Source of the DNA: Trebouxia sp. TZW2008
Taxonomy: Eukaryota > Chlorophyta > Trebouxiophyceae > Trebouxiales > Trebouxiaceae
Length of the DNA: 64,000 nt
Direction of reading: 5' to 3'
Assembly: GCA_002118135.1 (NCBI GenBank)
Contig: BDIU01000124.1
Location: 62,001-126,000, forward strand
Shown here: one piece after another, positions 9,393-62,707 of the stretch
How the letters are laid out: the number at the start of each line of letters is the position of its first letter
How positions within the stretch are numbered: the stretch's first letter is position 1
The notes under the pieces: generated by a model
What the model was told of the DNA's origin: nothing
Databases searched by the model: none
The model's input: the letters and a program-made list of their open reading frames with translations, nothing else
Program-made: the position numbers and the translations under genes

Positions 9393-12300
9393 ATGCAGAC
9401 GGCCTGCGGGCAGGGATTGCAGCAGCATCTGCATCAATTTGTTCCTAGCAAAGCATTGCATCGGTGTCAGAGACCGGCCTCTGCATCATCGAGCAATCAG
9501 TACCTACACCGCAAGGCAAGTGACACCATCCTTTGCAGGATCAGGCACTGCCTGAACAACATCAGACGCAGAACTGATTTGCAGGCCCTACGTCAGCAAC
9601 GACAACCCTCACATAATAGAAGACGATCTCTCAAGATGCAAGCAGCTCCTGTAAGTCTGTGACTATAGCTGTATGTTCACTTGCAACAGCTCATGGCAAG
9701 TTTGACACAATGCAGAAATGCAGGCCATTGAGCAAGAAGAAGTTGTCGAAAGCGCCCCTGCAAGTCTCTGCAAAGAAACCTCAACAGAGCAAGACAGCAT
9801 GCGCGTCAAGTTTGAGGCAGCTGTGAGGCGCGCACAGGATGACATCTGCAAGGCTGTTTCAGACATGGATGGCAAGCAGTTTCATGAAGATGCCTGGACG
9901 AGACCAGGAGGCGGTGGAGGAGTCTCCCGTGTGCTTCAGGTGTGTTTGCAAGCTTTCCACATGACAGCTTCATGTCAGTGAAATGCCAAGCAGAATGTTC
10001 ACATATGATTGATCGATGTCAAGGTCTGATACAAGCAGCACAGGTGAACTGTCAAGACTCAGTTGCTGTTCAGTGGAGCTCTTCTGCTGTTGCAGTGGTG
10101 GGATTCATTAGGCTGGCACATGGCATTGACACTGCTTGCAAAAGCGTCTCCGTAACAGACATATGCACTTCTGGCTCTAGAGCCTCAGTGACCTTGACGT
10201 AGGCTATGCATAGCGGGAAGATGGATGGTGGTCGGTGTTGTTAAAATCGCACCAAGCCTGCAAGCTTTGTGCATTGAGCAGTTGAAAATACATTTGCCAC
10301 TTTGTGGTACAGAGCAAGATACATGCACGGAGTCATGCAGCGAGGCAATGTCTAGGAGAAGGCGGGAGTGTATGTGGCAGTAGTGTATGCCAGCATACTT
10401 GCAAACATCTTGAGTGGCATGTCAGTGTTCCACGTCAATGTCACAATCAGAAACACCCTCACATATCATGAGACATGCAGGGAGGAAATGTGTGGGAAAA
10501 GGCTGGAGTGAATGTGTCAGTGGTGTATGGCAGCATGCCTCCAGAAGCCTACAGGGCAGCTACGGGCACAGCCAAAACTCTAGGCAAGGAGAACGGGGCG
10601 CAAGACAGGGTGCCATTCTTTGCGTGTGGCATCAGCTCAGTCATGCACCCTCACAACCCCTTTGCTCCCACAATGCACTTCAACTACAGGTGACTGGACG
10701 CCACATGCTGCAATCCCTGTGTTTCTGGAACATAAGGCAACATGCAGCAGCTATGATTAGGCTGTCTCTGGATTCAAAGCTACATTCCTGCGTGACACTT
10801 GTGTGAGACCACATCACATTTCATCAGACTCTGCGGTACAGAAGAACGTGCAGCAATACAGTCTTGGGTGCTTGCTGAAACGTACGCCTGTTACAGGCTG
10901 TGGACAGGTCATTGTTGCATGTCACTAGCTTTGGCACATGCAATCAGCAACCAGTCATATGTGCCACATACTGGGCCAACAGACTTCAGACTCTGGTCTT
11001 CATAGACACATCTCTGCTTGCCGTCAAACAGCTTGCTGCACGCATCATGAAGTGCATACCCATTTGCAGCTGGTTCATGCCGTAAACTGCGGCAAGGCAC
11101 CTAAGTTTTCCTGCCCTGCTACGGGTAGCAAGAAGCAATCAACCATGTATTAACTTGTCAAGCCTCTTGCACAATTGTGTAGTTGCCTAAAGATGTTTTT
11201 GCGACAGAGGAGTGGAACACCAATCTCAGCCAACTGTTGGTTCCTATTGCCGTGCACCATACTGCATAGGGTCCGCCATTTATGTTGATTGCGTGATTGC
11301 CTGAAGGTATTTTGAGACAGAGGAATGGAACGGCATCCCCAGCCAGTGGTGGTTTGGAGGCGGCACAGACATCACCCCTAGCTACATCAACGCTGACGAC
11401 CTCAAGCACTTTCACGGCGCATACAAGGTAGGCTGACTGGGCTGATCCCCCACCAGTCGACATCTTGCTGCTCATTGGTCAATACCTTGCTTGCAAAGGC
11501 AGCAACCCTGGGCTGCTTCTGCATGCAGGAGCTCCTGCTCTGATGCTCACCGGCATCAAGCATCACTGCTAAATTGTGTCATAGTTGTTTTGTGTCGTAG
11601 CACAGTGTGCATGCATGTCCGCAAGACACATACAGCAGGCTGTGACAGACACAAACAGGCAAGGTCACATACATGCAGAAAGTATTGTGCTTGGCCTTGC
11701 AACACTGTATGCTCATGACTTTTCAGGCTGTGTGGGACAAGCATGACCCGGAGGAATGGCCCAAATTCAAACTATCTGGGTGACACAGCACATAAACATA
11801 GAGCACAAGATGCACCACAGATTTCTTGTGCAGCCACTTTTCACATTATGTTCAAACCATTTTGTGCATCCTCCCTTCACAGCATGTTCAAACAGTGCCT
11901 GTGAATGTTCAGGCTGTGTGTGATAAGCATGACCCTGAATACTGGCCCAAGTTCAAAAAGTGGTGTGATGACTACTTTGTGATCAAGCACCGCAACAATG
12001 AGCGCCGAGGCTGCGGCGGCATCTTCTTTGATGATCTGAATGACAAAGATGCTGACACCATCTTTGCTTTCTCACAAGATTGCCAGCAAGCTGTGGTAAG
12101 TGTTATCACACTGCTTTTGCAACAATGCCAAGCTTGACGGGTTGAGCAACAGAGATGCAAATCCAGCTTTGCTTCCTCACAAGACTGCCAGCAAGCTGTG
12201 GTGAGTGTTTCTGCTGACCCTGTGACTGCTGAAGCTCTTATTTAGTCGGTCACCACTGAGATCAAGTATGCATGCACATGTGACAGAACTTTGGTTGCTT

Positions 12301-13376
12301 GTGTTCCATTTGCTCTGTTTTTACAATGCTGATGCAAATGAGCTGTGAAATCCAATCTTTTGCTTGTTTGTTCGTGACTGAAGCAAGTGGTGATAGCACA
12401 ACCTGGTATTTACTCAGCCACTCAGCATGCATGACAGAAAAATAGCCGCTCAGTCGGAATTTAGATTAAGCAAATGTATTGATGCCTTGATAACACCCAA
12501 GTTGCTAACTGTGCTCATTTCTGCAACCCTTACTGCCTACCTTTGACATGGACCCAAGCGTAGATGGCTAGAATATGAGCTAGGACTGCCTCAAACGCTA
12601 GAGCCCATCAAACAATCTGTTCAATGGGTCCTAATCCTCAAGGCCGTTTCAAGCTCATACTGGCATATGTGCATGCTACCTTGTAATGCTGTGTAAGGCT
12701 CAATGGTCAGTCAGGGCATGAGTCTTGCTGTGACACAGCTAACACCTAAGCTGACGCAAGTGCCGCATGACTTTGCACACATGAAATTTAAAGTGTCCAC
12801 AGCAGCTGTGCATGCTGCTGATTAGTTTTTTTACTTGTGATTTGCAGGTTGACTCCTACCTACCCATTGTCGCCCAGCATAAGGATGATGACTTCACTGA
12901 GCAGCAAAAGCAGTGGCAGCAGATGCGACGAGGCAGATATGTTGAGTTCAATCTGGTGAGCGCCACCAAATTGTTTGCTGCATGTGCACCGCTTCTTGCG
13001 TTTCAAGGCCAAGCAGAAGCATGATCTGCACTTGTTTTGTGGCTGACACCCAACAAGCCGTCTTGAGTTGAAATGCAGTGTAGTCACCCTTGTTTCCCTT
13101 GAGGCTCAGGGCCTTGTAGCTCAACATCATTGGTGTAATTCTAGAGTGTTGAGCCAGAATGATGAAGGGTACATTTCAGAGTCAACAAAAACCCGTCTCT
13201 TGCCGCAGGTATACGACAGAGGCACTACTTTTGGCCTCAAGACTGGTGGAAGAATAGAGTCCATTCTGATGTCATTACCTCTGACGTCACGATGGGAATA
13301 CAATGTCAACCCCAAGGCCGGCTCTCCAGAAGCTGACCTGTTGGACGCTTGCCTGCACCCGCGAGACTGGGCATGA
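9393..13376 (+). CDS. CPX1/hemF: Coproporphyrinogen III oxidase, oxygen-dependent (plastid)
   Basis: Seven exons fit in phase: 9393-9650, 9724-9939, 10481-10689, 11307-11427, 11913-12095, 12848-12955 and 13209-13376, giving about 420 residues. The enzyme oxidatively decarboxylates coproporphyrinogen III to protoporphyrinogen IX, feeding both haem and chlorophyll. Family motifs visible in order are [134 protein letters not shown] and a C-terminal PRDWA. The first exon (Gln/Arg/Ser-rich) looks like a plastid transit peptide. Its ATG at 9393 is the first in frame. Introns carry four decayed copies of exon edges, at 10321, 11181, 11721 and 12150; none is needed for the protein. Confidence 0.95.
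10321..10400 (+). repeat. Ghost copy of CPOX exon 3 acceptor side
   Basis: This 80-bp segment aligns without gaps to 10461-10540, 140 bp downstream. The match covers the intron end, the CATGCAG acceptor and the exon start ([17 protein letters not shown] in the intact copy). The ghost has a TAG in the reading frame just after the acceptor, so it cannot serve as a coding exon. Confidence 0.8.
11181..11262 (+). repeat. Ghost copy of CPOX exon 4 acceptor side
   Basis: The segment repeats the intron end and exon start found at about 11295-11376 (TTGCCT-AAG, then TTTT-GACAGAGG-TGGAAC). The acceptor region has drifted (AAGATG instead of AAGGTA), and the GGGTD active-site part is lost. Offset is about 114 bp. 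Confidence 0.75.
11721..11771 (+). repeat. Ghost copy of CPOX exon 5 acceptor side
   Basis: After a TTCAG acceptor the ghost reads [15 protein letters not shown], against [17 protein letters not shown] in the intact exon at 11913. It then runs into a TGA. The copy is still 12 of 15 residues recognisable or better, and lies 186 bp upstream of the functional acceptor. Confidence 0.85.
12150..12206 (+). repeat. Ghost copy of CPOX exon 5 donor side
   Basis: This repeats the exon-5 end at about 12046-12102, including [11 protein letters not shown] coding sequence and a GTGAGT donor where the functional one is GTAAGT. Unlike the acceptor-side ghosts of this gene, it lies downstream of the intact exon. 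Confidence 0.85.
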
Positions 13377-16255: not shown

Positions 16256-27551
<11,296 letters not shown>

Positions 27552-28267: not shown

Positions 28268-31200
28268 ATGCATTCGGACGCAGGTGCTAAGTACTTCACG
28301 CCAGCTGCTGCTGTCGGCGCTACCATATCATCGGTCGCGAGGATGAAGACAGTGAATCTGGCTGGTGCTTGCAGGGCGTCACAGCTTGCAAGGACAGCTG
28401 CGATGGCAACCAAGCGCAATCAGACAATCAGATTGCCAAAGCAAAGCTCAACAGGCAAAAGCAAAAGGCAAGTGGAACCTGAGGAGGTGCCACTCTGGGA
28501 TCGCTTTCATGTCAGCGTCACAGGCTTTCCCTTTCCGTTGGGACCCTTCTTTCAGAGAAGGACAGTACGCAAAGAGGTAATGCTCTGAGATGGCATTCTG
28601 TGTGTCAAATCCCTGATGTCTTGTGAATTTTGCCTGTGCAGCCTACAGCAAGTGCAGCAACAGTACCATAACTCGCACATTTGCACCAATGCCCTATGTG
28701 TTCAACAAGTTTAGAATGCATGTCGCATTCTGTCTCAATCTTGAGCAAGTAATGCTCAGCATGCGCATAGCTAGGCAAAGGGCAATTTTGCGCCACGATT
28801 GCTGACTCAAGCATATCTGGATTGGACTGTAGTCGAGCTTTTGTCCTGCTATGCCATGCTTGGGAGTGATGCAAGCAAGCAAGGAATGTTGGGGACAGTC
28901 AATTGCTCCTGTACCCAGCTGGGGCCCTTGAGCATGCCCAGCCTGCATTATCAATAAATGAACATAATGAGACTTGGTGTAGGTGGACAAAGGGCGGCTG
29001 TGGCTGTTTGAGCAGGAGCAGTCTCTAGGCGGTAGCAATGTCACCACAGTAGTCAGGATGACGGTGCTGAAGCTGAAGAGTGGCGGGCTGTGGGTTCATG
29101 CTCCTGTGGCACCCACCAGGCGAGTGAGTGCTGCGCCAGTCAACATCTGTCCATACTTGTGTACATCATCACTGTCTATCTGTGCCTGTGTGCTTCGTCG
29201 CCAGCAACCTTTCCTTCTTCAGCCCACCAGACAAGTGAGTGCTGCGCCAGTCAACATCTTTCTGTGCTTACGTGCATCCAGCTTCTACATCTTCTACCTC
29301 CTTGGTTTTTTCTTCTCTTTCTCCCTCTTCAATTTCTTCTTCTTTGCAACAAAGGCAGCCTTGTAGCTTATTAAAAGCAAGCCTGTTCTTTTGGTGACAA
29401 TCCCACCCTTTGCTCATTCATGTTGCCCATGGCAGGCAAGTTCCATGGCATTAGCTGCATGATGTTTGGGTGATTGACTGTCTTGTTGTGAATGACATGC
29501 TGCCTCAGCTGTCCCGAATCCCTCCTCTGGTTAAGTGTGACCGCACTTGACCACAGGAAAATCTCAGATCAGCTCAATCAGCAGACAATCAGTGAGTCAA
29601 AGTTCATGCACTGTAAAATGCTGAGATGCCTGCTCAGGACTTGAGCGCCTCCCAATTGAACCATGGCAGACATCAAAGCTGTCAGATTGTTTTGTCATGT
29701 AGCGACCCTTGATTGCACTCTGACTCACTTGGTTGTTTGACTTGGACTGTGATGCATGCTCAATTGAGATGAGCTCCGAAAGATGTGTGCAAATGTTGCA
29801 CAATGCCAAAAGTCATGCAAAGAAAAGCGCTGAGCAGTGGACTGCGTGCGGCCGCTCAGTGAAGATCCACTTTGCTTGCTGTTCTCCTGGCATGCAGTGC
29901 AAGACCAAGCTATAGTTTGCCTTGCAGAATCAGCATTGATTAAGCGTGACCTGATGGTATGTGCAAAGCCTGCTTGACAGTGCGCTTTGAGCATGCTGTG
30001 TGATTACAAGTCAAGGCAGGCTCAACGGTGCTTATACATGCAGCAGGCTATCAACCACAATGCACTGTGAGCACAGTCATCTTGCTATGCTCGCATAGGG
30101 ACCATGTGACACACATTCACACTGAGTCATTGCGGAGAAACAGCCAAAAACATCATGCACAGTGAAGTGATGGTCCTTGTTTAGATGCTTTTTGACAAGG
30201 TCTGGAAGTGTCGTCAGTGGATGCAGGGAATGTGTGAGATTAGTCAAAGAGCTGGAGTTGCCCATTGAGCACATTGTGCTGCCAACATTTGCGTATGAGC
30301 ACAAGATCTTCCTAGCGCCATTCTCTAGGGCATTTCCCCTGGCCAAAGTTTGGATTGCACCAAGGTAGGCTATATACTCCTGGCAAATTGCCTACATCAC
30401 ATCATCTGAGCATTCCCTCTGGCCAAGCATTGGAATAACCAAAGTGGCTTCTTAATCATGCCAGTTTGCCTACGTCACAATGAAAGAAACTTCCATGCAC
30501 CCAAGTGGCCGTGTGTTGCCATACTTAGCACTCAAGACCATAACACCTGTGAAAGTGTACACCAAAGGCATCTGTCTCACAAGAAGCGCTGCCACTATAC
30601 AATTGTCATCCTAGCAAGCTGCAGTCAACATGTAATTCAGCACCTTTACAACCACACTTCTGTGTAGTATTTGGATTGGCTTGCCACTGCAACTCTTGTG
30701 TGTTCTGCCAGCATCCGTCTCACAGGTTCTTCTTGCTGTTGCTATGCACTTTTTTTACCAGGGCCTCAACCTATGTTGCTGCTGGTGCAGCCATTGTGCA
30801 CATTTTTGTGCAAGATCATCAGCGCCCAAGATTCAAAGTTCCTCTGTAAGTGCTACACAGTCATGTCCATAAGCCGTGAATGTTTGATGAAAATAAATGG
30901 TAGCAGCAATGAAGACGATTTTGGTTCTGCAGGCAGTGGAGTTGGCCAGTGCAGCTGCCAGTACAGTTCTTTGGCATCTTTCCAACAGGTGGTGTCATCA
31001 CCGAAGAGAACCAGACGCTGCCTTGGAGTGATGAGCTGGAACACAAGATCTTTGTATCAGACATAGGTCAGTGTCCTGCTGCACAGGCATGTTGTCATCA
31101 GTCCCTGGCTGAATATCTCATGACAATCATGTGCCAACGTGAGACATGTCCGCGCCACTTGTGTGTGGGACCTGCAACATAGCATCTGCTTGTCAAGGCA

Positions 31201-37994: not shown

Positions 37995-40900
37995 TGCTGC
38001 GCAGTCTCACAGCAGCCCTGGCTGCGGCATTTCAGCTGCGAAGGAAGCTTTGCAGGCACAGTGCTGGTCCATCCGCACGGCGTTGGCACTCCGCCCTTTG
38101 CCATCGAGTATAGTCAGGTGGGTGCTTCAGTTTGACAGCAGAGCCACTGTTTGGCATGCATAGCTGTGCTCAAATCTTGCAAACTTATTACTTATGGGCT
38201 ACATGAGTTGCACAACCTTTGTTGCAAAGGGAACGGCAGGCCAGTAGGCCTCGCACCGTGCCGCCTGCAGCAAATCAGGTCCAAATCAAGCTGTACTGGC
38301 AGCGCCTTCTTTTGAAAGCAGCGCACTGATTTTCACCAGCAATAGCATCCCAGACCCATCACCCGGCACATTGCGCTCAGGTTTCCAAACAGTTATTAGC
38401 AAAATCACTGGCAAACAGCGCTGTTCTGCTTTCTGCACATGAAAGGAAAGGAGAAATAGGCATGGACTGGCCTACAGCTGGGCTGTCGCAAGCTGCTGTC
38501 ACATCACACAATTATTGGGGGTACAGGTGGTGAACATTCAGACGTAAAAGCCGTCGCACATGAGTAAGGGCTCTAACACTTGGCTGTCACATTGAACAGC
38601 TGTTGCGTGCAGGTGTCAAACAACAAGAAATACCTGGCAGTAGCAGATGAGGAAGGACACATCAAAATGCTGGACACTACTCAGCCTCTGCCAAGGGGAC
38701 TGAACAATAAGAAAATCCACACCAACATCACTCACAGCACAGCGCTGTCTTTGAATTTACCTGGCTTCACATCAGAGAGCTGTTGCATGCAGGTGTTGAA
38801 CAACCAGAAGTACTTAGCAGTGGCAGACGAGGAGTGGTGTGTCTCGATCCTGGACACTTGTTCAGCCTCTGACAAGAAGACTGCATAATGAGGAACACAC
38901 CCGCACAGTGACAGGCCCATCACCATGCTAGCTCTGATGTCACCTGCTGTCACATCAAAGAGATGTTGCATGCAGATGTTGAACAACCAGAAGTACTTAG
39001 CAGTGGCAGATGAGGAGGGGTGTGTCTCAATCCTGGACACTGTTCAGCCTCCGACAAGAAGACTGCATAATGAGGAACACACCCGCACAGTGGCTGGCCC
39101 ATCACCATGCTAGCTCTGATGTCACCTGCTGTCACATCAAAGAGATGTTGCATGCAGGTGTTGAACAACCAGAAGTACTTAGCAGTGGCAGATGAGGAGG
39201 GGTATGTCTCAATCCTGGACACCACAAAGCCCTTGCCAAGGGGCTTGCACGATGAGGGAGCAACACCAGCACAGTGGCTGGCCCACCATAACGCTATCTT
39301 TGATGTCACCTGGTGCCAGGTATTGTGCCCTGCAAAGGCTCACCACACCGTCCTGGACGCCATTAAGCCTTTCCCAAGGGGCCACGTCAGCACAGTGGCC
39401 GGCCCACCACAACGCTATGTTTGATGCACTTGTCCAACTGCAATGTAATGCTTGGTAGTATTTTGGGAAAAATCGGTTCAAAGTATGGCGCCTTGTGAAG
39501 GCCTATTCTAATTCTGTTTTTGATGTCAGCTGATGCAGTGAGTTACACCTTCTTTTTACCCCGTTCTGTTTCTACCCTGTATGATTTCTACTTAACTGTG
39601 CTGACCTGCAGTGCTGCTTTGCAGCAACAGCCAGATGGTGACAGCTTTTCTGCCCTGCATTGTTTTTATCCTGTAGTGCTGTTGTGCTGATGATGAAGTT
39701 TTCTTGGTGCGCTGCTGCAGAAAGACAGCCAGATGCTGACAGCCTCATGAGAACAGAAACTGGCTTTACGAGACATAGGCAGAGCTGCACATCGTAACAG
39801 CAAATTGCAGAATCCTGCTCTCTATCACTTCCGCACTGCGTCACTCCGCGAAGTTGCTCTTCTGTGTGGTTAGGGCGGAGAGGGATGCAGAATGTGACAA
39901 CAAAACGTACTGCTGCAGAAAGACAGCCAAATGCTGACAGCCTCAGGAGATCAGACCTTAGCGCTGTGGGACACCGGCAGAGCCAGCTGCCTGGGAGTGT
40001 TCAAGGGTCACCATGGCTCCGTGAAGTGTGTGCGAGCAAAGCCTGACTGCCCTGAGGTCTTTGCATCAGGTACTCGCCAGCCCTTCTCAGCTGTTGTTGC
40101 TATCAGAGTAATTGTTGGCAACACCGCTGCTGTTGCACTTGTGCACAGTTTACAATTTGCGCGTTTCTGACCATTCACGCAAAAGTGTACAATGTTCTGG
40201 GCTTGCCTTGTCACTGTATCTGCACTGTAGGTTGGCGAGAGACCAAGCAGGAAGGCTTTCACCTTGCATATGGAACAATGTGTGATGACTTGATCAACAC
40301 AAGCACAGTCATATTTGCAGCTGGGGTGGTGACTCTGGTGCAACAGGTGCAAAAAACAGGATTTTGACAGTTTAGGGTTCAAGGGAAATAGCTCATTGGG
40401 ATGCTGATAGAGGCGTGGCTGTTAATATGCCACCGTCGTGGTGATGGAGGATGCTCTCGAGAGCAATGCACATGGGCAACTTGTCATTGTTAAAACACCA
40501 TTCTGTCTGCGCATCTGTACATCTGTCCAATTTGTGCTTGTGTAGGTGCAAGAGATGGGGCTTTGATGGTTTAAGATTCAAGGGAGGTGGCTCTCTGGGA
40601 TGCTGACAGAGATGTGGCTGCTAACATGCCTGTCATGCTCAAGTCTAAGTCTTGCTTGACACTTCAGATGCAGTGTCCGTCTGTGCAGGTGGGAAAAGCT
40701 CTGATGGTATGGGATTCAAGGCAAGTGGCTTGCAGGGTTCAGACCGTGTCTGCTGCCTTGCTTTTCCAAGAGAGTGTCCTGAAAAATGGTATACCTGTGT
40801 GCAAGGCATGGTGGTGTGGGATGCTTGCAAGTAGCTCGCTGGGATGCTGATAGAGGCATCCTTGTCAATGCACTTTGCACATGCAATGAATGGTTTTGTT

Positions 40901-43900
40901 TTGCTTGCATCAGCGTCGATCTGCATGATCATCAAGAGTGTGTGTGCACAGGTGCGAGAGACGGGGCTCTGATGGTCTGGGATTCAAGCGAGGTGGCTCG
41001 CTGGGAAGCTGACAGAGGCGTGGCTGTCAGCACGCATGTGATGGCCATGTCTCATGCCTATTTCGTGATTGGTGATGCAGTGTCTGTTTGTATGCAGGTG
41101 CAAGGAGAGGAGTTTCATGTTGTGGGACCTCAGGGTAGCAGCTTGCTGGAATGTCAGAAAGGGCGTGCCTGTCAACACGCCTGTTATGCTCATGTCTGAG
41201 GTTTTGCTTGTCAATTCGGCGCAATGTCTGTGCACAGGTGCAAGAGATGGGGCTTTGATGGTTTGGGATTCAAGGGAGGTGGCTCGCTGGGATGCTGACA
41301 GAGGCGTGGCTGTCAACACACCAATCATGATGATGAAGAATGCTCTCAAAAAAAGCTTGACCTCAGCTTAAGCATTCCGTCTGTGCGTCGCTCACTTTTG
41401 TCTGTGTGCAGGTGCAAGGGATGGGGCCTTGATGGTGTGGGATTCAAGGGAGGTAGCACGATGGGATGCTGACAGAGGCGTGGCTATCAACACACCAGTC
41501 ATGGTGATGAATGATGCTCACAAGTATGTCAGCTGCGCTACTGACAGCGCACGCAAGAGGAGGAAGCAGGTGATGATGCATGGCAACATCCTGTTACACA
41601 TGCATATTGATGCAGAGGGAGACACCTGCTGGCCGCGCAGTGGCTGTCAATACGCCTGTCATGGTGATGGAAGACGCTCACAAGTATGTCAGCTGTGCCA
41701 TTGAGAGTGCACGCAAGAGGAGAAAAGGGGTGCTGCTACATGAAGCCATCCCGTTGTACTTGCATATCAAAACAAAAGGACCGCAGCTGAAAACATGCAT
41801 ATCATGGTGATGGAGGATGCTGACAAGTGTGTCAGCTGCGCCACTGAGAGCGCTCGCAAAAGGAGGAAACAGGTGCTGCTGCATCACGCCATGCCATACA
41901 TGCAATGTACACATTCATGCAGTTGTCCAACAAAGAAGCAAAAAAGAAGTCAAGGCGCTCCAGTGCTTCGGGACACTGATTGCGATGCCTCTCATCTGAT
42001 GAGTCAGTTTTACTCATGATGGTGCACATGGAGCAGCTGGGTACTCATCCTGAGCATTGCTTTGACAAGGCTTCACTTGGGGCCTTTTACAGAGTTGGCT
42101 CAGGATGCATCCACTCAAACAGCTTGCAAGTGTCAAGAAACACCTTTGTCCTAACTGTATGTGGACTACTTCAGGTGGAGAGCAAGCAGAGCGTGACCTC
42201 AGCGCTGTTCCTGCACGGTGGTCAAGTCCTAGCCAGTGCAGGTAACATTGCAAATGCATGCCTGCAATCTGCATCGTGATTTGAGCAAACCACCATGCTA
42301 CCAGTGCTCCTGCCTCGCTGCTTTTTTGCTTGTAGCAGAGTCTCGGGTTTGTCAAGACTGGCATATTGTCTCTGATTGCAGCAGCTACAGTAGTAATATT
42401 CCTGGATGCAAAGCTGGGATAGCCACCAATCAGCATTGCATTGCCTTCTACGCTGCCACAGAGGCCATATCAGGAGAGCTGCTGGCTAGCTATGGTGGTG
42501 CTGCTTTTGCAATGTTGCACACAGCTGTAATTTGGCAAAGTATTGTTGTCACTGATTTGCAAAAGGCATCTCAGCAGAAAGCCATTTTTGCTATGGTGTG
42601 GTCAATGTGTCACTTCACCTGGCCAACTCTTGTCATGACAGCTGCTAAATCCGCTGCTTTTATTGATTGCGTTATGCTATTGCCGCATTGACTGCCGTAT
42701 TCAAGTTTGCTGACATAACAGGTGCTGGTGATGGCATGGTGAAGTTTTGGGACTTGAGAAAGACAGACAAGCCCAGTTGGCAGCTAAGCGCACCCTCGCC
42801 AGGCTCTACCCCACAAGTGGTCACCCCCACCCCTCGTACTACCTCCAAGGTACCCAATTTACACCAAAGTTTGCTTGACGGCTATGCTGGCATTTTGGAC
42901 TCCAAAATCATGATGCCTGCACGGGGAAATGCCCAGTCTTGAGCATTTGTCTATTAGTTTCTCACACCGGCAGGATTGCTCTTGATCTTCATGGGCGTCT
43001 GGTGCCGTGAGAAGTTGTCACCCCTACCGCCTGCACTGCATCCTAGATATCATTAAATGCATGCCAAGCAATGCAGAGAGAGACCTCAGACAGGCTATCT
43101 GTTTTGTTTCAAGCCTGCCTTATGCCTCACAAAATCACTGCAAACCCCCGCAAACCTGCACACATAGTGAGGGCAAACCTGGGATTGTCAAAGGCCCTGT
43201 AGAGGCCTGATGGTTGCTGGAAGGGTGTGATGCACTTGAGCTGACCCTTGGCCTCATCTTGTGTATCTGTCCATGAATGCAGATGAAGCCTTTTGTGGAG
43301 ATTCCCTCTGTCTACAAGTCCAAACACCCGCATGGTGTCACATGCTTGGCTCAGGACCCATTAGGTAAATATGTTTTCCCATAGCCATGCACTTTGCTTA
43401 ATGTCATTGCTGCATTGAACTATCAACAGAGCAACTCAAAGAACTCAACCTTTTGTGGTTTGAGGTTCAGCCCAAATTTATATGCGCACAACTGATACGA
43501 TGCTGCAAGGTTGTGCATGAATGCCCTGAATGCCTGCATGAAGTAGGTGAGCAAGTAAACTTGTACCGTACGTCTACACGTTGATCGTTCATAAATAATG
43601 AGATCTGTCCTGCGCAATCAGCTCCAGTGATTATTTTGCCCCTGCGCAAAGTGCCCTGTGCAAAGTGATTTATTGATTGTTTTGGCTCAAAAGTGCTGAA
43701 CACGCTCAATTCTCACAGTTTTCAGCCGATTTTGGCCATATTTTGCCAATCTTGACCATATTTTGCCAAATGCACGCTGTTCCAAAACACCTCAAGGCCT
43801 TGCGCAAAAGGGGTGTCCAACGTCCTAAAACAACCCAAAAGGTGTGGGTTGCGCAATCAATTTGAGGACATACACTTGTTGAGTACGCCATATGCCACAT

Positions 43901-46900
43901 GCAGCTTCTCCCTTGCACTGATTGCTAGGGCTGTGCAAACATGCTGCAGTGTTTCCTATGCCTGGCGGTGAAAAATTTTGCTTGTATCGGATCGTCCTTA
44001 CCAAGAGATACCTTTGCAGTGAGAACGCAATTGCCTTGTCCTCACTTTGAGAACGTCCCTATATTGGGTGTCAATACAAAGAGAAGTTATTGCATAGTGA
44101 CTGCAGTGGGTGCCTGGCAATCAGGCTTACCACAAAGGCTGTTGTGATGCAGGCTCCAGGCTGTTAGTGAGTGTGGGTAACAGTGTGCATTACCTATACG
44201 ATACCCTAAGACCCAGCATTGGTCCCACGGCTGCCTTCACTGGCCATGTCATGTCATCCTTCTTCATCAAGGCCTGCTTCAGCCCAGACGGCACTCACAT
44301 CCTGTCTGGCTCCTCTGACAAGAATGCTTACATCTGGCAGGTACACCATGCATCGTCGTGAGCCAACAAGTCTCATATGCACTCGTTTTCTCCTAGTTGA
44401 TGCTTCTGCTTACATCTGGCAAGCAGACCTAGACAGAATCTGCATCATCAGCCTGTGTTTCGACACACAAAGTTGCGCTCACTTCACGTTTCATCTATGG
44501 AAGTGTACGTATCAGGCAGGTAGACCTGAGCAGATCTGCACCGAGTCTGCAACAATAAGTTTCACTGAGTTGGACCCAACCTGTACCTTATCGACACGGA
44601 TGTCGCTGCAGTTTAATGTAGGCCTGTTTGCTATGAGCTGCATCTGTCAGATGTAACATGATGTGGCTGCATGTAGGTTGATACGCCCAGCCACTAGCGC
44701 GGCAAAGGCATCACAGAGACGTGATACCTGTGACTGAGCAGGTGCACAAAGCCTCATCAAAGCCTGTATGCTACCTCACTACACACAATCAGACTGTGTC
44801 AGACTGTTGCTGCTTGTAGGTGGACGCTCCATATGCCAAGCCATTCAAACTACAAGGTCATGAGAGGGAGGTGACAGCTGTAGCATGGTGTCCTACAGAC
44901 CCTCACAGCATTGCCACATGTGGGGATGATGCGACTGTCAAGCTGTGGAATGTGCAACAGCCCTGGCCTCCTGCCCCTGGCCCTTCGCCCGAGGTGAGTC
45001 ATGTTTGGTGCAGTGCATTGCTCATGGGAAAAGGCACCTTGTACAGTCGGGAGTGTTTTCTCACAAGCATCATTGCTGCTGGCGGCACTGCTCTTGCCTG
45101 CCCTGCATGACGTATGCACTGTAGCTTTGACCAGTCAGCACTGCAAACGAAAGCCATGTGCTGAAGAAGATTGCAATTACTGCTGATGCAGATGTGACCA
45201 GTCACCACTCATGCGGACCGTCACAGTCACTCAGCAATCTGTGCTACAGAGTGCAGCAGATGCAGCTGTGTGTAAGTCAATGCTGCAGATTGCTAAAGTC
45301 AGTCAGCTGTCTGAACTAGATACAGCAACAGTCATTGCAGATATGTTTTGGCCAAATCAATGCCGCAGACTGTTAAAGACAATTAGCTGTCTCTGCCACA
45401 GGAGGCAATTCTCGCTGCAGATACAGTGTGACCAAAGTGACGCTGCAGACTGCTACAGTCACTCACGATTCTGTGCCCCAGAAGGCAACTGTCACTGTAG
45501 ATACATTCTCGCCAAGTGCAGTCAATGCTGCAGACTGTTCAAGACACTTAGCTGTCTCTACCGCAGGGGGCAAGTCTCACTGCAAATACAGTGTGACCAA
45601 ATTGATGCTGCAAAATGCTACAGTCACTCAGGGTTCTGTGCCCCAGAAGGCAACAGTCATTGCTGGCCAAGTGCTGTCAATGTATCTGTAGACTGTTAAT
45701 GATACTCAGCTGTTTGTGCTACAGGAGGCAGTTGTCACTGCAGATACAACTTTGACAGTCAAAGCTGCAGAGCGTCACAGTCTGGAAGCCGGTCAGAGGC
45801 AGTTCCAGCTGTGCCTACTGAATGCTGCAGACTGTTGCAGTGGTGGTCCTGACCCCCAAAACGCCATCTCTCTGCTGGTTGCTGCTCTGAAGGCAGTAGT
45901 CTCAGGCCACTTTCACTCACAGAGGCTCCCCTTGTGACGCCTGACGGCATAGGCTCGTCTTTTCCTTTCTGACACTCACACAGTTGTCTGTGCTACAGGA
46001 GCCAGCAGTCAGTAGGCTGCAGATGCTGTGTGGGTACTGTCACAACTGATTATCTCCATCAAACCCCTCCCCAGCTTCCCACCCCAACCCCTGCTGCGCC
46101 CCGGCAGCCTACCACTAGTCCCTGCCAGGCAGTGCTGTAGATTCTTGTCATTACTCAGCTGTCTGTGATACAGGAGACAACCGTCAGTACAGATGCTGTG
46201 GGTTTGGCCACAACTGATTGGCTGAGCTCACCACCCCCCACCACCCCTTCTGCGGCCCCTCAGCCAATATCCCAAACTTTGGCAGAGAACCCAGCTGCTG
46301 TTGCTGCAGCTGTCAACAGGGAGAACATGCTGCACAGCATATCAGGTGAGGTTCAGGTTTAAGTTGTGCTCAAACGCCTTTCTTGTATGCTTTCAACAAG
46401 CCTGCTATGGCCTGGGAGGGACTGTGACCACTCTGGAAGCCTCAACCCTTTTGATTGCCAAAGGAGGGGCTAAATCCAATGGCGACCCTTGCCAACAAGT
46501 TTGAAAGTTGTAGCAGCTGGCCCCAGAGCCTTGCAGTGCTGGTGAGGGCCCCAAGCCCATGGGGGTGACCTAGGAAGATATGGAACGACATTGTGTTGTC
46601 TGGATTTTGCATGTTGAACATCAGCCATCCTTATTGTGACGCTCAAAACAAGCCGGCCTGGCGGGACAGGACTTGGGCCACACACACCTAGCGCATGTGC
46701 TGGACAGTCTAAACATTTATTATTATTATTAACAAGCCTGCTTTTTCTGCTCCAGACTGCTTTGCAGCGTTGTCCTGTTCCAATATGCCTGGGTCCTGGA
46801 CAAGCAGTGCTGACAAGTGTGCCATTACCGGATGTATACAAGTTCGTCTGCTTGTCGCCGTCATGCTGAGTCCAGCATTGAGCAAAGATGTTTGTTTTGA

Positions 46901-49051: not shown

Positions 49052-52727
<3,676 letters not shown>

Positions 52728-54329: not shown

Positions 54330-54535
54330 CTTGCTCACTGCTGTGCACAGCTTGACACTTGACACAAATGACTTCAGAACTCCATGTGCTTCAGCCATTC
54401 TTTTTGTTTGGGCCGCCCGTTGAAATCTTGCCAAAGAACCAGAAATGTGGCCAGCCTATATAAGTCCTCTGGATGCTACAGCACCACTTCTGCTTGTGTC
54501 AAATGCTTACTGGCCCATTCCTGATATTGGCTCTG

Positions 54536-54541
54536 AATAAA
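54536..54541 (+). terminator. Probable polyadenylation signal of the KRP gene
   Basis: AATAAA lies 207 bp downstream of the stop codon at 54329, followed by a TGTG-rich stretch (GTGGAAGGTGTGCTG). Confidence 0.5.
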
Positions 54542-56070: not shown

Positions 56071-56079
56071 GTGGGAGTT

Positions 56080-59000
56080 GGCATCCGACCTGAACCTGGT
56101 GGCTGGCTTGCAGGTTCCTCTCCACGTGCTTCACCTTCTCACGCAGCCTCTCACTTTCCCCCTGCAGATACCTTACCTGCAACAGTACTGAGAAGCTCAA
56201 AAAGGCAACATACCTAAAGATTGCTAGATTATTGTACTCATCTACAACACAACAGGTTTGGCTGCAACATACGGTTAGCAACTTGAGGCACTGTCGCTGA
56301 CTTTGTCTCGGAACCAAAGTGCAAATTATGCACAAATGCAGCCTATCGCAGAGGGCTGTTGTGGTGCATTTCTAGCCAAACATGCTGTCATTTTGCGTAC
56401 ATGGCATCATGCTTGCGACATTTGGCAAGAGCATACATTGTGCGCTGCATCCATGCATATCCAACAGTGCTTCACCAAAGCAGCTGATCACCTGCAGGCT
56501 ACAGAATACTCAGAACTAATGTGCTATGCAAAGCAATGTTCACACTTCACAGTAAAGAAGGCGTCATGCAGCATGCGCTGGGGAAGGAGGAGATGGAGGC
56601 CTCAGAGATTGGTGGGGCTGGGCTTGATTGGGGAAACAAAAAGCCTTCGGGGATAATAATGGGTGCACAATGGGAGTTTGTGGGAAAGTTGTCCCCTGAA
56701 GCTGCAAGACTGGACTTTTGTTGCATCTGGCTTATCAATCAATCAATCAATCAATCATGGCAACTGACCATCCTGCATCATATGGAATGCTACAGCAATG
56801 TCTCGCGCGCAAGTAATGAGCAACTGAACATGTCAGTAGTTGCTATTGCTGTACTCATGTTCGACCAGCTGCTGTTTGCAGCTCACCTCTTCAAGATGAA
56901 GAGCAACAGGAACCACTCCCTCGTCCTTGCTACCATTCACCACTTCCCTGGCAGCTGCTCTGGCAGCTACTGCGCTGGTCCTAGTCAGCTCGTCAGTCAG
57001 CACTACAGCCTCTGTCTCCAGCTCCTTACACCTTTCTTGACTTGCCTGAAGAGCAGACAAAACACATGATCAGCATTCACATGAGAAAGCACACGAGCAC
57101 CAACAAGACATGAACAGCGACCACATGCACTGTGGCGACGTGACAATGCATATGCACAGCGACTTCTGGTGAGCTCATCTGTCAGCAAATGGCCATTCTT
57201 ATGTCCTTGCACTGCTGCTGACTTGCCTGAAGAGCAGACAAAGCACACGATCAGCAACCAAAGACAACATACAAATGCTGCGCCATATCAACTGGCCACT
57301 ATGCTGATTCTGGTGAGCTCATAAGTCAGGACTACAGTCTCTATTCCCAGCTCCTTACACCGCTCTTGACTTGCCTGTAAGGCAGACAAACCATGTCAAG
57401 TCCATCCCAGGCAAACAAGTTGATACCAGTCCAGGCAAAGCATGAATATGATAGTCATTGTTTGACCTGAAAGGCGACCTTTCAGCAACAGACCATATGC
57501 ATCATGGTATGCCCAGCTTGTATTCTATTACAGTATTAGAATGCTGCATGTATCCAGACCAAGAGCATGCACAGTCAGCCACGATTGGAAAGCAAACAAC
57601 TGCTTTGTTTTGCAGCCAAGCGTCAACTTACCTTGAAATCTGTTAACAGGACAGCCAGCTTGTGGTCTGTATAAGCCACCCTCTGATCAGCAGCAGCAAT
57701 CTGGGCTGTGAGGCTTGCTGCGTCTGCCTTGTGTTGCCTGTCCACTGCCAGCAGAGTGCCCTCCCTATCCTTGGCCTCTGACAACTGTCTGTTCAGATCC
57801 AGAATGCTGTTTTGCAGCTCCTACAAATGGTATCATGATTGTAAGTGCAGCGGCACTCATCAGCAGCAACCTGGGCTGTGAAGCTTGCATCTTCTGCCTT
57901 GTGCTGCCTGTCTACTGCCAACGGAGTGTTCTCCCTGTCCTTGGCCTCTTATAACTGCCAGATCAAGGATCCTGTTCTGCAACTCCTGCATTGAGATCGT
58001 CACCCAACTCATCAGTTCATCTCTGCTGGAGTATATGGAGTGCAAGGTGTTCAGATGTAAAGTGCTGCCTGTCCAGTGCCAGCAGGGTGCCTTTCCTGTC
58101 CTCCGCCTCAGCCAACTGCCAGTTAGATCCAGAATGATATTTTGCTCTAAGCAGCAGCAAGATCATCAGCGTGTCAGCAGTCAGCAGCAACAATTTCAAA
58201 TGTGAGGCTTGCAGCATCTGTCTTGTCCTGCCTATCTACTGCCAGCAGAGTGCCTTCCCTGTCCTTGCTTCCATCAGCTGTTGCGTGAGGTCCAGAAGCT
58301 TGTTTCATGAACAATACAGATAGCCTTGAGCAACGCCAGCAAGTTGACAGGCTATGGAAATGCACTTCAGATTCAGAATGCTGATTTATCATTCCTTTAG
58401 AATGCACGCAAAGTCAGCAAACTCTGTTGCACTGTAACCTTCATCATGCAGGAGTCGAGCATATTGCAGGCCAATGCATCTTTCAATTCCATTGCAGCTC
58501 AGCAGCATGCTGGCGACTCTGTGTAAGTACATGAAGCATTGGACAAGATGCGCAATTGCAAAGCAGACTAGAGTGCTCAGCCTTGCACAACAAATGCCTA
58601 GTACAGTAACATCAATGGATAAGGACACTCGATGTAAGGACATCCTTATTGTAAGGACCATGCAGCTATGAATCAAGCACTGCATTCTGACCACAGTGTC
58701 ATTTTTGAGTAAGGACATTTTGATGTAAGGATATTTCCCTGTTAAGCAATGCAGTTATGATAAAGAGAGGTAACTGTATGCTGATGTGGCTGATTAGTCC
58801 GCTATCTTGGCCTGCCAGCAAAGCTGCGCACTCAGATAAGATGAGATAAGATAAGATAAGAACATTGTCAACAATGGCTTCTATATTGGTCTTGCCAGGA
58901 TATACAACAGACTCATAATGCTCCATCTGTGCTCTTTTGGCCAGTTCCTCTGATTCATCTCATAAAGTCTAAACCGCAGAGTTCCAAAGCTGTTTGTTGA

Positions 59001-62000
59001 GGGGTTCACCTTGCTGTGCAGTTCAGTTTGGCAAACCTGCTCCACTTCCTTTGACATGCTGCTCACTGTCACCGTCAACATCTGCATGCTTTACCACCGT
59101 AAAAATGCTCTTGCTGTCAATTCCAGACTGAATTACCTTGTTATGCAGCTCAGTTTGGCGGGCCTGCTCCACTTCTTTGGCAGCGCTGTCCAGCTGCTTG
59201 TCCTTGGCCCGCAGATGGCTATAACACGCCTTGTTATCTTTGCTGAGCGCTGCATTCTCGCCCTTCAAGCTCCTGACCTCTGCCTCCAGACTTGCTACTT
59301 GGGCAGAGAACTTCGCATCCTGCACCGACAAGGAGACAAGTAAGTACTCATGAGCTGAAGCAAAATGGACTCTGCCTTACTTTTGCCCTCCAGGCTTCTG
59401 ACCTCTGCACCATGAATAGACCCTTGCACAGAGATCTTGATTTCCTGCAAACATAGGCAGAATGAAGACACTCATACACATAAGTGCTGATGCCAGTAGC
59501 ATGCCTTCTTATCTTTGCTGAGCACTGCGTTCTCGCCCTTTTATATTTTGGGCAAAGGAGTGTCTGCAGACATTAAGCAATGCCGAAGTCAATGCGTATG
59601 GATAGGACTGCAGCAGCGTTTTTGCCCTTCAAGTTCCTGACTTCTACCTCCAGACGGACCACTTGCACAGAGAACTTGGAATCCTACAAGAGATGCAGTT
59701 GTGAAATTGCAGTTGCATTTGAGGAACACCAGTTTGCAGCGTTCTTTCCCTTCAGGCTTCTGCCTCTAGGCTGGTCAAGAACTTGGCGTCCTGCAAGAAC
59801 AACCTGGAAGTGCACGTATACTCAGGCTATGTACTGCCTTTGCCAAATCTACAAAAGTCTGGAACCACTGTGATAATGTCAAGCATAACGTCACACTTGT
59901 ACTCCACTTGTTGACTGAATCATCAAGATGTGCTGCCCTTGGGTGTGACTGCTGCCACAATGAGCAGTGAACGCCATCTTCATGTCTGACTGCAATTGGC
60001 TGGCTGCAATGGGGCTCACTTGTCTGCATCGCTCTGCGGTTTGCTGGATCCAATCAAGATGGCATCGACACAATCAAGGGCAAACATGATAATGCTGTAC
60101 CTTGGGCATATTGGCCAGCTTGTGTGTGAGCTTGTCTGCCTGCCGACCTGCCGCCTCAGCACTGCTCTGCGCCTTGCTGTGTGCCTCCTGGCTCAGCTTC
60201 AGTTCCTTTGTTGCCACTGCCACAGCCTCTGCAATCGTGCACAATTTCTGAGACAACTTCAACTGCAGAAGAACAAGTCGCCTCAGCGCTGCTCTGCGCC
60301 TTGCTGTGTGCCTCCTGGCTCAGCTTGAGCTCCTTACTTGCCGCTGCCTCAGCCTCTGCAATCATGCATTTGTTCTAAGGGCACTCTCATAAAACTAAAA
60401 TTTCTCAGCACTGCTCTGGGCCTTGCTGGGAGCCTCTGCAACCATGCACGCGTTCTGAGGCAATGTTGATTGCAGAAATCAGTTGTCTCAGCGCTGCTCT
60501 GCGCCTTGCTGTGTGCTTCATGGCTTAGCTTCAGCCCTTTGGTCGCCACTGCCACAGCCTCTGCAACCATGCACAGTGTCTGAGACAACTGCAACTGCAG
60601 GAAAAGCCAGTCGCCTCAGCACTGCTGTGGGTCTTGTTGTGAGTCTCCTGTCTCAGCTTTAGCTCCTTGGTTGCCACTGCCACAGCCTCTGCAATTGTGT
60701 ATATATGCATTTCATGTTGTTGGCTTGACGTGATGAGTGCCACACCCTCTGCAACAACAGTGTTCTGGTGTTGCTGCCAGCATATGGCGTATTGTTTAGA
60801 ACAGCCTCTGCAATTGTGGACATGTAAACTCCTTGCCATTGAAGTGTTATTCTGCAAAGCAGTGCCACGGCCTCTGCACCTATGGCCATGTGACCTATGC
60901 ACTTTGAAAAGTTGCTTGAGTGCAGAAGACTCGGTGCCCGACCGGCAAGGGCACTGTGTTGAGTTGTAACTACTCAGCTTGTAGCATCAATATGCATATG
61001 CACATCATTTGCAGAAATGGCCAGGAAGTGTTCAATCACTCAACTAAATACCAGCACAGAGAGAAAACTCAGGCAGCACTTGGGCTGAGCATCGTCAACG
61101 CACCTCAACTATTGCATAGATTAGTTTTAAACAACAGCCTTGACAATTGATTTCTGTTGCCGCATAAGGCAGCACTTGCAGATGACTGCCCAGAATTTGA
61201 TGTCCAATCACAACTGGCAACCAGGACATGCATTACTCACGTTCAGCTTTAACCGCTCTTTCATGCTGGCGGGCCAAGTCATCTGCTCCCTTGGCCAGCG
61301 CCTTGTCTTTTGTCAATACTGCTGCCCTAAGAGTTCGCACCTGCACACACATCAAAGAGACTGAAATTCGTTAAAAGCCTGGATGAGTTGTGGAACAAGG
61401 TAATGTGTGGAAGAGTACACAAATGCAAAGCAGTAGTGTTACATGTACAGAACAGTACACAAGACTGTTTGCTTTTAGAAAGACAGAACACCAACTGCTG
61501 CATAGGTGCTGGCCAAATGGTTGAAGATAGCACAGGACCAAACTGGTTGGAGACAGCTCATTGCTCCAGTGTGAACCTAGCTGGGCCTGCTGAGCCTGTG
61601 TAGCACACATTTAGCAGGAAAGTTCAATGAACAGGTCCTAGCCAGCAATGATGTCTGCGGCATCTTCGAGCTGATTCACCAGTGGGCCAGGTGGAGCATG
61701 ATATCAGTTCAGTGATCATGCGGCTAGATATGACAACTCAACACAAGGTCAAAGTTGCTTAGCAGGGTGGCCATTATGCATGGCCATAACTCACCTCTTC
61801 TTCAGTCTGAGCATGCTCCCTCTGCTTGGCTCGCAGCTCATTGCGAAGGTTGTTCAGCTCAAACTGCAGGCCGGAGCTCCCTGGAGCATCTTGACCGCTG
61901 CTGCTCAGTCTTAAACTGCTGCTCGCTCCAGCCTGACAGCAACATTGCAAAACTGTGAGACAAACTGGTGGCAACTTATGCACTGCTGTCTGTTGTGCGT

Positions 62001-62707
62001 CGATGATCAGATTGCACGACTGAGCTGCTAGGAGCATCCTGACCGCTATTGCTCACTCTCAAAGTGCTGCTTGCTCCAGCCTGTGAGCCACAACGCAGTG
62101 AGTTGGGACAGAGCACAGCGGCAACAACGCTGTTACAGACTGCCTCTGCTTCCAAAAACACTGACAGAACCCCTACCACTTGCTGATTGAAGAATGCTGA
62201 TGCGTAAAAGCACAATTACACTTGAATGCTACTGGCAGGAACACAGCTTCTTTATGATGACAAGAACCTTCTGAGCATGAGGTCGTGTGTTCAATATCGA
62301 CAGAATTGATTGTTGCCAACTGGATTGCTGCCTGGCTTTACAGTGTGCATGACGCTGTTATGCTGGGCAAAGGGCAATGCAGTCAGCTCACCGGTGTCCT
62401 GGGTCTGGATCTTGGAGTGCTGAGAGAGACTGACTTGCCAAGCGGCGGGGTGCCCTTGACAGACCTTGGAGTCAGGCCACCACTGGTGCTCGCCCTGAGG
62501 TTGTTCACTTGCCTCAAGACGCTGCAAGGCACAGTCGTGACTCACAAGGTGTTGATGAAAGATCCATCGGAGGGTAGAACAGCAATACCAGGACGACAGC
62601 ATGGCCAGCGATGGCTGCATTGCCCCTGCAAAGAGGTCCTGCTAGAGCTACAGTGCTTGCCTGGGAGGTGTGAGTGACTGCTGAGAAGTCTCAGCGGCTT
62701 CACTCAT
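56080..62707 (-). CDS. Long coiled-coil protein, family unknown
   Basis: Read on the minus strand. Exon 1 (62707-62661, MSEAAETSQQSLTPP) joins through a GC donor (CCCAG|GCAAGC) to 62521-62392 (VNNLRASTSGGLTPRSVKGT), then 61932-61795 (FELNNLRNELRAKQREHAQT) and 61340-61241 (LTKDKALAKGADDLARQHER), all in phase. Further exons, with borders not all resolved, carry heptad-rich sequence: TKELKLSQEAHSKAQSSAEA near 60150, SLEAEVRSLKGENAALSKDN near 59260, LDLNRQLSEAKDREGTLLAV near 57760, ERCKELETEAVVLTDELTRT near 57000 and ESERLREKVKHVERNLQASH near 56120. The N-terminus has several TP/SP sites, as in cell-cycle-regulated centrosomal or Golgi proteins, but no family is recognised. The C-terminus is unknown. 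Five ghost arrays lie in its introns. Confidence 0.6.
56734..56757. repeat. (ATCA)n microsatellite
   Basis: About six copies of ATCA within an intron or the 3' part of the coiled-coil gene. The plus-strand frame just before it (56547-56733) looks unusually protein-like and could be mobile-element debris. Confidence 0.8.
57010..57385 (-). repeat. Ghost copies of the coiled-coil exon at about 56880-57047
   Basis: The intact exon start (CAAGAAAGGTGTAAGGAGCT, LETEAVVLTDELTR) recurs at about 57170-57235 and 57318-57380. Both ghosts lie 5' of the intact exon in gene orientation. Confidence 0.75.
57640..58330 (-). repeat. Four copies of a coiled-coil exon, one intact
   Basis: The intact exon at about 57640-57822 (LDLNRQLSEAKDREGTLLAV) recurs, with decay, at about 57870-57985, 58050-58145 and 58215-58295. 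All ghosts are 5' in gene orientation. Confidence 0.8.
58838..58861. repeat. GATAA-type microsatellite
   Basis: Short run of AAGAT/GATAA units in an intron of the coiled-coil gene. Confidence 0.7.
59010..59800 (-). repeat. Ghost copies on both sides of a coiled-coil exon
   Basis: The intact exon is at about 59141-59322. Acceptor-side copies (KFSAQVASLEAEVRSLKGEN-like) lie at about 59370-59450, 59615-59690 and 59740-59795. A donor-side copy (EVEQVCQTELHSKV) lies at about 59005-59060. The polarity matches the rule seen in the other genes. Confidence 0.75.
60085..60900 (-). repeat. Array of about six copies of a coiled-coil exon
   Basis: The intact copy near 60091-60262 codes AEAVAVATKELKLSQEAHSK. 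Copies follow at about 60285-60365, 60400-60450, 60490-60585, 60615-60700 and, as short remnants (CACAGCCTCTGCAATTGTG), at about 60740, 60800 and 60870. All are 5' of the intact exon in gene orientation. Confidence 0.82.
61990..62085 (-). repeat. Ghost copy of the coiled-coil exon at 61932
   Basis: AGASSTLRVSNSGQDAPSSS recurs 140-150 bp upstream (gene sense) of the intact AGASSSLRLSSSGQDAPGSS. The ghost then loses the FELNNLRNE part. Confidence 0.85.

What the first reader, a model, noticed from the sequence alone, without database searches (positions are those of the whole stretch)
9393..62707. Introns throughout the window are filled with tandem decayed copies of exon edges
Five unrelated genes (CPOX, TBCD, DUF4336, CDT2, WDR5) and the coiled-coil gene carry ghost copies of their own exon borders, in about 18 separate places, with 1 to about 9 ghosts each. 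Each ghost includes intron and exon sequence from one border, so it is not a protein-domain duplication. Copies differ from each other by many substitutions and indels, so they are not assembly stutter. One reading is that intron length in this genome grows by repeated short tandem duplication across splice junctions, with only one copy kept functional. I know of tandem exon duplication as a route to alternative exons, but not of a genome-wide pattern of this kind.
Basis: partly seen in the sequence, partly recalled or inferred. Interest (0 to 1): 0.88.

Follow-up and report, generated by a model that had tools for sequence, protein, structure and literature searches.

The report
Introns grown from exon-edge copies
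In this green-alga genome (probably a Trebouxia, the partner alga of many lichens), stretches of about 150 DNA letters are often copied side by side, and copies that catch the edge of an exon are left as decaying ghosts in the neighbouring intron, which makes introns longer and leaves many decoy splice sites.

Summary
The window holds 20 local head-to-tail arrays; 13 lie in homology-verified genes (CPOX, TBCD, DUF4336, CDT2, WDR5) and all 13 meet an exon edge. It is widespread: 200 kb of another contig has 50 arrays covering 11.5% of bases, none after shuffling, and 8 of 10 HSP70/CCT loci on further contigs have arrays. Units are about 150-160 bp. Acceptor ghosts lie upstream (24 of 26) and donor ghosts downstream (13 of 13), as tandem duplication with continued use of the original site predicts. 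Divergence (codon positions .17/.15/.31, intron .27) fits a frozen exon beside a neutral ghost. Introns with arrays have median 722 bp against 322. Exon-edge placement exceeds a random-placement simulation modestly (33 of 45 against 53%, P .004); another null showed no excess. Ghost splice sites mostly persist (25 of 30). Best reading: frequent short tandem duplication, tolerated across splice junctions, lengthens introns; a new variant of a known kind. No RNA or sister-species DNA was available.

The parts
10330..10543 (+). CPOX: ghost (acceptor equivalent near 10339) upstream of the real exon 10481-10689, offset 140
11174..11354 (+). CPOX: ghost (near 11191) upstream of exon 11307-11427, offset 114
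11716..11957 (+). CPOX: ghost (near 11725) upstream of exon 11913-12095, offset 186
12028..12209 (+). CPOX: donor-side ghost (near 12201) downstream of exon 11913-12095, offset 106
19257..19984 (-). TBCD: acceptor-side ghosts (near 19570, 19789, 19908) upstream of exon 19311-19128
23561..24457 (-). TBCD: array including the whole exon 24050-23857 with flanks
29112..29278 (+). two-copy array beginning 8 bp inside the end of a predicted exon 28983-29119 (gene not verified)
33039..33283 (+). DUF4336 gene: 89-bp unit, 2.8 copies, donor-side ghosts after the exon matched at 32903-33091
38578..39432 (+). CDT2: 3 upstream ghosts (near 38611, 38791, 38974), period about 182, of exon 39158-39319, plus a short downstream match
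39712..39983 (+). CDT2: ghost (near 39719) of the start of exon 39919-40069
40338..41904 (+). CDT2: large array, 9 HSPs, ghosts on both sides of exon 41412-41569
45142..46265 (+). CDT2: array upstream of exon 46174-46345
50446..51191 (+). WDR5: three upstream ghosts (near 50528, 50714, 50899), period about 185, of exon 51086-51353; each carries intron end plus about 105 bp of exon
51086..51353 (+). WDR5: the exon copy that continues the protein (last copy of the array)
51630..52145 (+). WDR5: ghosts (near 51813, 51947, one further upstream) of exon 52073-52194
56966..57393 (-). coiled-coil gene: upstream ghost 57297-57374 of predicted exon 57045-56887
   Evidence: predicted exons only
57687..58305 (-). 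coiled-coil gene: array upstream of predicted exon 57820-57632
   Evidence: predicted exons only
59008..59182 (-). coiled-coil gene: two-copy array at the 3' end of predicted exon 59319-59056
   Evidence: predicted exons only
59211..59767 (-). coiled-coil gene: ghosts upstream of predicted exon 59319-59056
   Evidence: predicted exons only
60147..60702 (-). coiled-coil gene: ghosts upstream of predicted exon 60262-60101
   Evidence: predicted exons only
61859..62097 (-). two-copy array beginning 5 bp inside predicted exon 61863-61795

Best explanation
The genome undergoes frequent local head-to-tail duplication of units of about 150-160 bp. A unit that straddles a splice site is tolerated, because the exon body still lies next to one copy of that splice site: the last copy for an acceptor, the first for a donor. 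That copy stays functional and the other becomes intron. Freed copies decay neutrally and repeated events build arrays, so introns grow. Shown here: locality, tandem layout, polarity, neutral decay of ghosts beside a constrained exon, longer introns where arrays are, and presence in unrelated genes and in stretches taken without regard to content. Inferred: that the spliceosome really skips the ghosts (no RNA), and the molecular origin, most likely fill-in of staggered breaks or nicks followed by end-joining, or another replication-repair error with a nucleosome-scale step. A modest excess at exon edges beyond random placement is indicated but not explained.
For: Density and zero shuffled hits. 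Contiguous units, with no match outside the array reported for the WDR5 unit in the 68.5-Mb assembly (that search gives lower bounds), and only 5 weak cross-matches among 86 arrays. Polarity 24/26 and 13/13 ghost sites in homology-based genes, and mostly kept in the 200-kb sample (17 of 21 HSPs with an upstream ghost reach the acceptor, 19 of 25 with a downstream ghost reach the donor). Divergence pos1 .170, pos2 .151, pos3 .306, intron .266 over 42 pairs in 10 genes; intron/pos12 ratio 95% CI 1.42-2.17. 26 of 42 ghost loci have a stop or frameshift. Intron length median 722 against 322, P 4e-10. Unit sizes.
Against: The pos3/pos12 ratio alone is not diagnostic: functional HSP70 paralogs give 1.74-1.99 through saturation; the case rests on the intron/pos12 ratio, pos1 being close to pos2, and stops and frameshifts. 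Intron-only arrays are rarer than this model with random placement predicts (2 of 21 against 33-41%, P .002-.014), in a gene set partly picked for ghosts. The 42 pairs overlap and are not independent. Two of ten HSP70/CCT loci (L030, L035) show no array. No transcript or sister-species DNA was available, and no other eukaryote as a control.
Confidence: 0.8

Rival explanations
1. Exon-targeted duplication: the duplication process itself is aimed at exons or their edges (for example by a nucleosome positioned on exons, or by Okazaki-fragment or nick spacing), so exon-edge arrays exceed chance for a mutational reason.
For: 200-kb sample: 33 of 45 against 53% expected (P .004). 14 genes: 2 of 21 intron-only against 33-41%. 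Unit length clusters near 150-160 bp with almost none above 300 (2 of 104 clusters; 70 arrays, 5-95% 111-258).
Against: The excess is small (odds about 2.4 by arithmetic) and could come from weaker deletion pressure next to exons or unmodelled detection effects. Shifting whole copy pairs gave no excess (39 against 40.5, P .78), though I hold a single unit in array-free sequence to be the better null. Coding-likeness gave no significant excess (37 of 50 against 34.4, P .24). The 14-gene set is partly picked for ghosts; in its eight other genes 7 of 9 arrays meet an exon edge. Exon-side breakpoints looked spread (read from coordinates, not tested).
Confidence: 0.22
2. Ghosts are functional: alternative, poison or mutually exclusive exons, or recursive splice sites that help remove long introns.
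For: Ghost splice-site dinucleotides are kept in 25 of 30 cases, above flanking intron dinucleotides (59%; P .005).
Against: Against the fitter neutral expectation (only the ghost mutates, about 70%) P is .085. Single-border arrays are the rule, so a ghost has one splice site (19 of 25 arrays; count). 26 of 42 ghost loci have stops or frameshifts. Exons with acceptor ghosts are not enriched for GT starts (8 of 17 against 27 of 71, P .58), which speaks against ratchet-type recursive splicing.
Confidence: 0.08
3. [quoted passage not shown]
For: Same kind of mutation; exons often start with GT after AG (35 of 88).
Against: Among the detected repeats, 0 of 88 introns show the expected homology of the intron 5' end to the downstream exon start, or of the intron 3' end to the upstream exon end. 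60 of 88 introns have no array of 30 bases or more.
Confidence: 0.05
4. Assembly artefact, or a dispersed repeat such as an Introner or transposon.
For: None found.
Against: The best copies per array are 61-94% identical, with many indels. The genome search with one WDR5 unit reported matches only in its own array (lower bound). No direct repeats further than 1.5 kb apart inside the twenty 10-kb stretches.
Confidence: 0.02

Closest known systems
Tandem genomic duplication model of intron gain (Rogers 1989, Gao & Lynch 2009 and Hellsten 2011 as cited in PMC4974935 and PMC3443670; passages read)
   Same: Short tandem duplication inside genes touching exons; splicing hides the extra copy. The potato RdRp case duplicated an intron-exon structure.
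   Different: Here no intron with AGGT-type duplicated ends was found (0 of 88); existing introns are lengthened with partial exon copies, often in arrays, at many loci.
Short tandem duplications from break or nick repair (CST/Pol alpha-primase fill-in, PMC8355091, passages read; rice insertions by Vaughn & Bennetzen 2014, seen only as a citation there)
   Same: Head-to-tail local duplication; plausible source mechanism.
   Different: That paper describes small tandem duplications as the most common short (<100 bp) insertions in the human genome; here units centre on 150-160 bp and recur at the same sites.
Tandem exon duplication giving mutually exclusive exons (recalled)
   Same: Copies of exon sequence in neighbouring introns.
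   Different: Here the copies mostly hold one splice site and part of an exon, and decay neutrally.
Introners / transposon-made introns (PMC9860276, start of abstract in search listing)
   Same: Intron sequence derived from repeats.
   Different: The arrays compared here are private to their loci.
Minisatellites (recalled)
   Same: Tandem arrays with period up to some hundreds of bp.
   Different: Low copy number, strong divergence, source sequence is an exon edge.

Membership tests
Local tandem duplication | Direct, adjacent copies, private to the locus | tested here: met
Local tandem duplication | Polarity: functional copy is the one contiguous with the exon body | tested here: met
   37 of 39 ghost sites; the 2 exceptions lie in arrays holding a whole exon
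Tandem genomic duplication intron gain | Intron ends homologous to flanking exon ends (AGGT duplicated) | tested here: not met
   0 of 88 introns, among detected repeats
Tandem exon duplication / mutually exclusive exons | Copy is a complete exon with both splice sites and an open frame | tested here: not met
   4 of 25 arrays include both borders; 26 of 42 ghost loci have a stop or frameshift
Tandem exon duplication / mutually exclusive exons | Copies used in mRNA | not testable with these tools
   no RNA data
Introners | Same sequence in many unrelated introns | tested here: not met
   86 arrays compared, 5 weak cross-matches; one unit searched in the whole genome
Nucleosome-scale duplication | Breakpoints related to nucleosome positions | not testable with these tools
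   only unit length measured

The most novel reading that the evidence does not exclude
A nucleosome-length (about 150-160 bp) duplication process preferentially hits exon edges in Trebouxia, is a main source of intron length in this genome, and seeds thousands of decoy splice sites that the spliceosome must ignore, perhaps through exon definition.
Probability: 0.2. Interest if true: 0.82.

Novelty: new variant of a known kind. Interest (0 to 1): 0.62.

Why it matters
Here the donor of each intron insertion is known (the adjacent exon edge), its age can be read from codon-position divergence, and each ghost is a natural decoy splice site of known similarity to a real one. By arithmetic, 70 arrays in 264 kb would mean roughly 18,000 in 68.5 Mb, about one per gene at published Trebouxia gene counts (12,820 to 16,701); this extrapolates from two contigs. 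It would make both transposon-free intron growth and splice-site choice directly testable in a lichen alga with several sequenced relatives.

Tried and rejected
Protein-domain repetition (WD40, coiled coil): rejected, since copies contain intron and the effect is also in HSP70 and CCT genes. Chance: shuffles give 0. Unit length as a multiple of 3: no preference (27/20/26). Acceptor bias: 13 acceptor-only against 6 donor-only arrays in the 14 genes (my count, with HSP positions used for the four 'exonic' arrays), but 10 upstream-only against 12 downstream-only in the 200-kb sample, so no bias is claimed. Recursive splicing and AGGT intron gain: not supported. Codon-position ratio as sole proof of neutrality: dropped after the paralog control. 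Coding-likeness as an exon test: uninformative (inside against outside arrays 16% against 12% in the sample; 14% against 22% in gene bodies). Pair-shift null: no excess, 39 against 40.5 (at an earlier gene-finder setting). A first end-to-end simulation let splice sites mutate and gave too low an expectation (.39-.43); the corrected one gives .53 and is the one used, at setting -12 only. Other settings of the gene finder gave 38 of 47, 35 of 47 and 31 of 45 exon-edge arrays. Settings were compared on the same 14 genes by leave-one-out. Gapped BLAST found none of the simulated units of 50 and 70 bp, so short units rest on the ungapped scan. The E. coli 20-kb control (1 hit) checks the pipeline only. 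A plasmid search with one exon found nothing and says nothing here. Rows dropped: one uncertain intron in L032, one in L036 and two in L037; 5 exon-internal arrays in the sample; 4 whole-exon arrays when comparing with the single-border simulation (25 to 21).

Literature: 10 searches, listings capped at 8 to 15 papers each, showed no paper that I recognised as describing this pattern; the library holds open-licence PMC papers only. By term search in the main text, not whole reading: the Trebouxia A48 paper has no 'tandem', the six-strain Trebouxia paper no 'tandem', 'intron' or 'exon', the Asterochloris paper no 'tandem'.
Full report
What the sequence is. The window lies at 62,001-126,000 of contig C120 in a 68.5-Mb assembly of 527 contigs. 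TBCD matches Trebouxia proteins at 59-65% over the matched part and CDT2 matches Trebouxia sp. C0005 at 73%, so this is most likely a Trebouxia-like trebouxiophyte alga. Size and GC (about 50%) agree with published Trebouxia genomes (69.1 Mb and 49.7% for A48; 63-74 Mb for six strains).

The observation. Sensitive self-alignment finds 62 matches in the window, 57 direct, and none in three shuffles. They form 20 local arrays. I built gene models by spliced alignment to relatives for WDR5, TBCD and CDT2, to a draft of the gene itself for CPOX, checked against human CPOX in the PDB, and used Pfam for DUF4336. All 13 arrays in these five genes meet an exon edge. In WDR5, units at 50520-50704, 50708-50889, 50891-51074 and 51076-51191 follow each other directly, and a whole-genome search with the first unit reported no match elsewhere (the tool calls its counts lower bounds). 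Each carries the intron end and about 105 bp of the exon; the last runs on into the real exon 51086-51353. The first ghost has an in-frame stop and has lost its AG.

Not only here. Twenty evenly spaced 10-kb stretches of one long contig, C62, taken without regard to content, have 50 arrays covering 11.5% of bases, 111 direct against 17 inverted matches and 0 in shuffles. Four HSP70 and six CCT loci on ten other contigs were modelled exon by exon; 8 of the 10 have local direct repeats, L030 and L035 have none. Two of them (C150, C165) had already shown ghost-like extra matches: HSP70 positions 131-168 and 132-167 beside the real 131-205 in C150, and 369-415 beside 341-415 in C165.

Anatomy. In 14 genes with 88 modelled introns there are 25 arrays: 19 span a border by at least 10 bp on both sides, 4 reach 5-9 bp past it, and 2 are intron-only. 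In the eight genes not picked with ghosts in mind the figures are 6, 1 and 2. Ghosts of acceptor regions lie upstream in 24 of 26 cases and ghosts of donor regions downstream in 13 of 13. The two exceptions sit in arrays that hold a whole exon. This polarity is what tandem duplication must give if the exon body keeps using the splice site next to it. Introns with arrays (28 of 88) have a median of 722 bp against 322 bp, and arrays make up 25% of intron bases.

Ghosts decay neutrally. Across 42 ghost-exon pairs in 10 genes, divergence is .170.151 and .306 at codon positions 1, 2 and 3, and .266 in the intron part. If the exon is frozen at positions 1 and 2 and the ghost drifts freely, positions 1 and 2 should show about half the divergence of position 3 and of the intron, which is what is seen (intron/pos12 95% CI 1.42-2.17). 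The position-3 ratio alone is not proof, because saturated functional HSP70 paralogs give similar ratios. Of 42 ghost loci, 26 carry a stop or frameshift. Ghost splice dinucleotides are kept in 25 of 30 cases, not significantly above the neutral expectation of about 70% (P .085). So nothing suggests that ghosts are silenced or clearly used, and the spliceosome must somehow pass over many intact decoys. Exon definition would do this, because most ghosts have only one splice site; that is inference.

Is it aimed at exon edges? Shifting the arrays at random in the 14 genes expects 14.8 border and 7.0 intron-only arrays against 19 and 2 (P .03 and .008). Simulated random duplications with decay expect an intron-only share of 33-41% among detected single-border or intron arrays against 2 of 21 (P .002-.014). 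This gene set is partly picked for ghosts, so the C62 sample is the fairer test. For it I trained a small gene finder on the 14 genes; left-one-out it finds .97 of exon bases at .95 precision and 63 of 69 internal exons exactly. It puts 33 of 45 arrays on exon edges, with 5 more inside exons set aside. An end-to-end simulation with the same detection expects 53% (P .004). Against this, shifting whole copy pairs gave 39 against 40.5 expected, and a coding-likeness test 37 of 50 against 34.4. I prefer the simulation, because after a duplication the ghost lies in intron by construction, but the excess must be called modest. Most of the association is geometry plus the better survival and detection of copies anchored by a conserved exon. 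Candidate causes of the rest are exon-positioned nucleosomes or fewer tolerated deletions next to exons; neither was tested.

Unit length. The smallest offset per array has a median of 161.5 bp over 70 arrays (5-95%: 111-258). An ungapped scan without the BLAST blind spot shows, besides short repeats under 40 bp, a peak at 140-160 bp, with 2 of 104 clusters above 300. The upper limit is not a detection limit. This is close to nucleosome length (recalled), but only the length points that way.

Place among known things. Short tandem duplication, and its role in intron gain, is known (PMC3443670, PMC4974935, PMC8355091; passages read). What differs here is the outcome and the scale: existing introns lengthened by arrays of partial exon copies at many loci, with a preferred unit size. 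The searches named under Tried and rejected listed nothing that I recognised as describing it. I rate it a new variant of a known kind.

Noticed in passing
22120-22297 and 46552-46729: Inverted 77% identical pair of about 179 bp; translations contain '[15 protein letters not shown]' and 'PRKIWNDIVLSGFC', perhaps ends of a LINE-like element (label recalled).
   Followed up: no
55871-55948 and 61533-61610: Another dispersed inverted pair, 82% identical over 78 bp.
   Followed up: no
35450-35513: Perfect AATGT microsatellite, 12.8 copies.
   Followed up: no
51354, 21978, 21290: GC-AG introns appear among the modelled introns of WDR5 and TBCD, so GC donors may be fairly common in this genome.
   Followed up: no
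14689-15831: A long open frame that looks like RAE1 (name recalled; a WD40 match lies in it) and carries no array, in contrast to its neighbours.
   Followed up: no
G000:C447:21195-23635: A second DUF4336 gene, a possible paralog for dating the ghosts.
   Followed up: no
14 modelled genes: A very simple codon-usage plus splice-site model finds 63 of 69 internal exons exactly in leave-one-out: splice signals here look very informative, which may be why decoys do little harm.
   Followed up: partly
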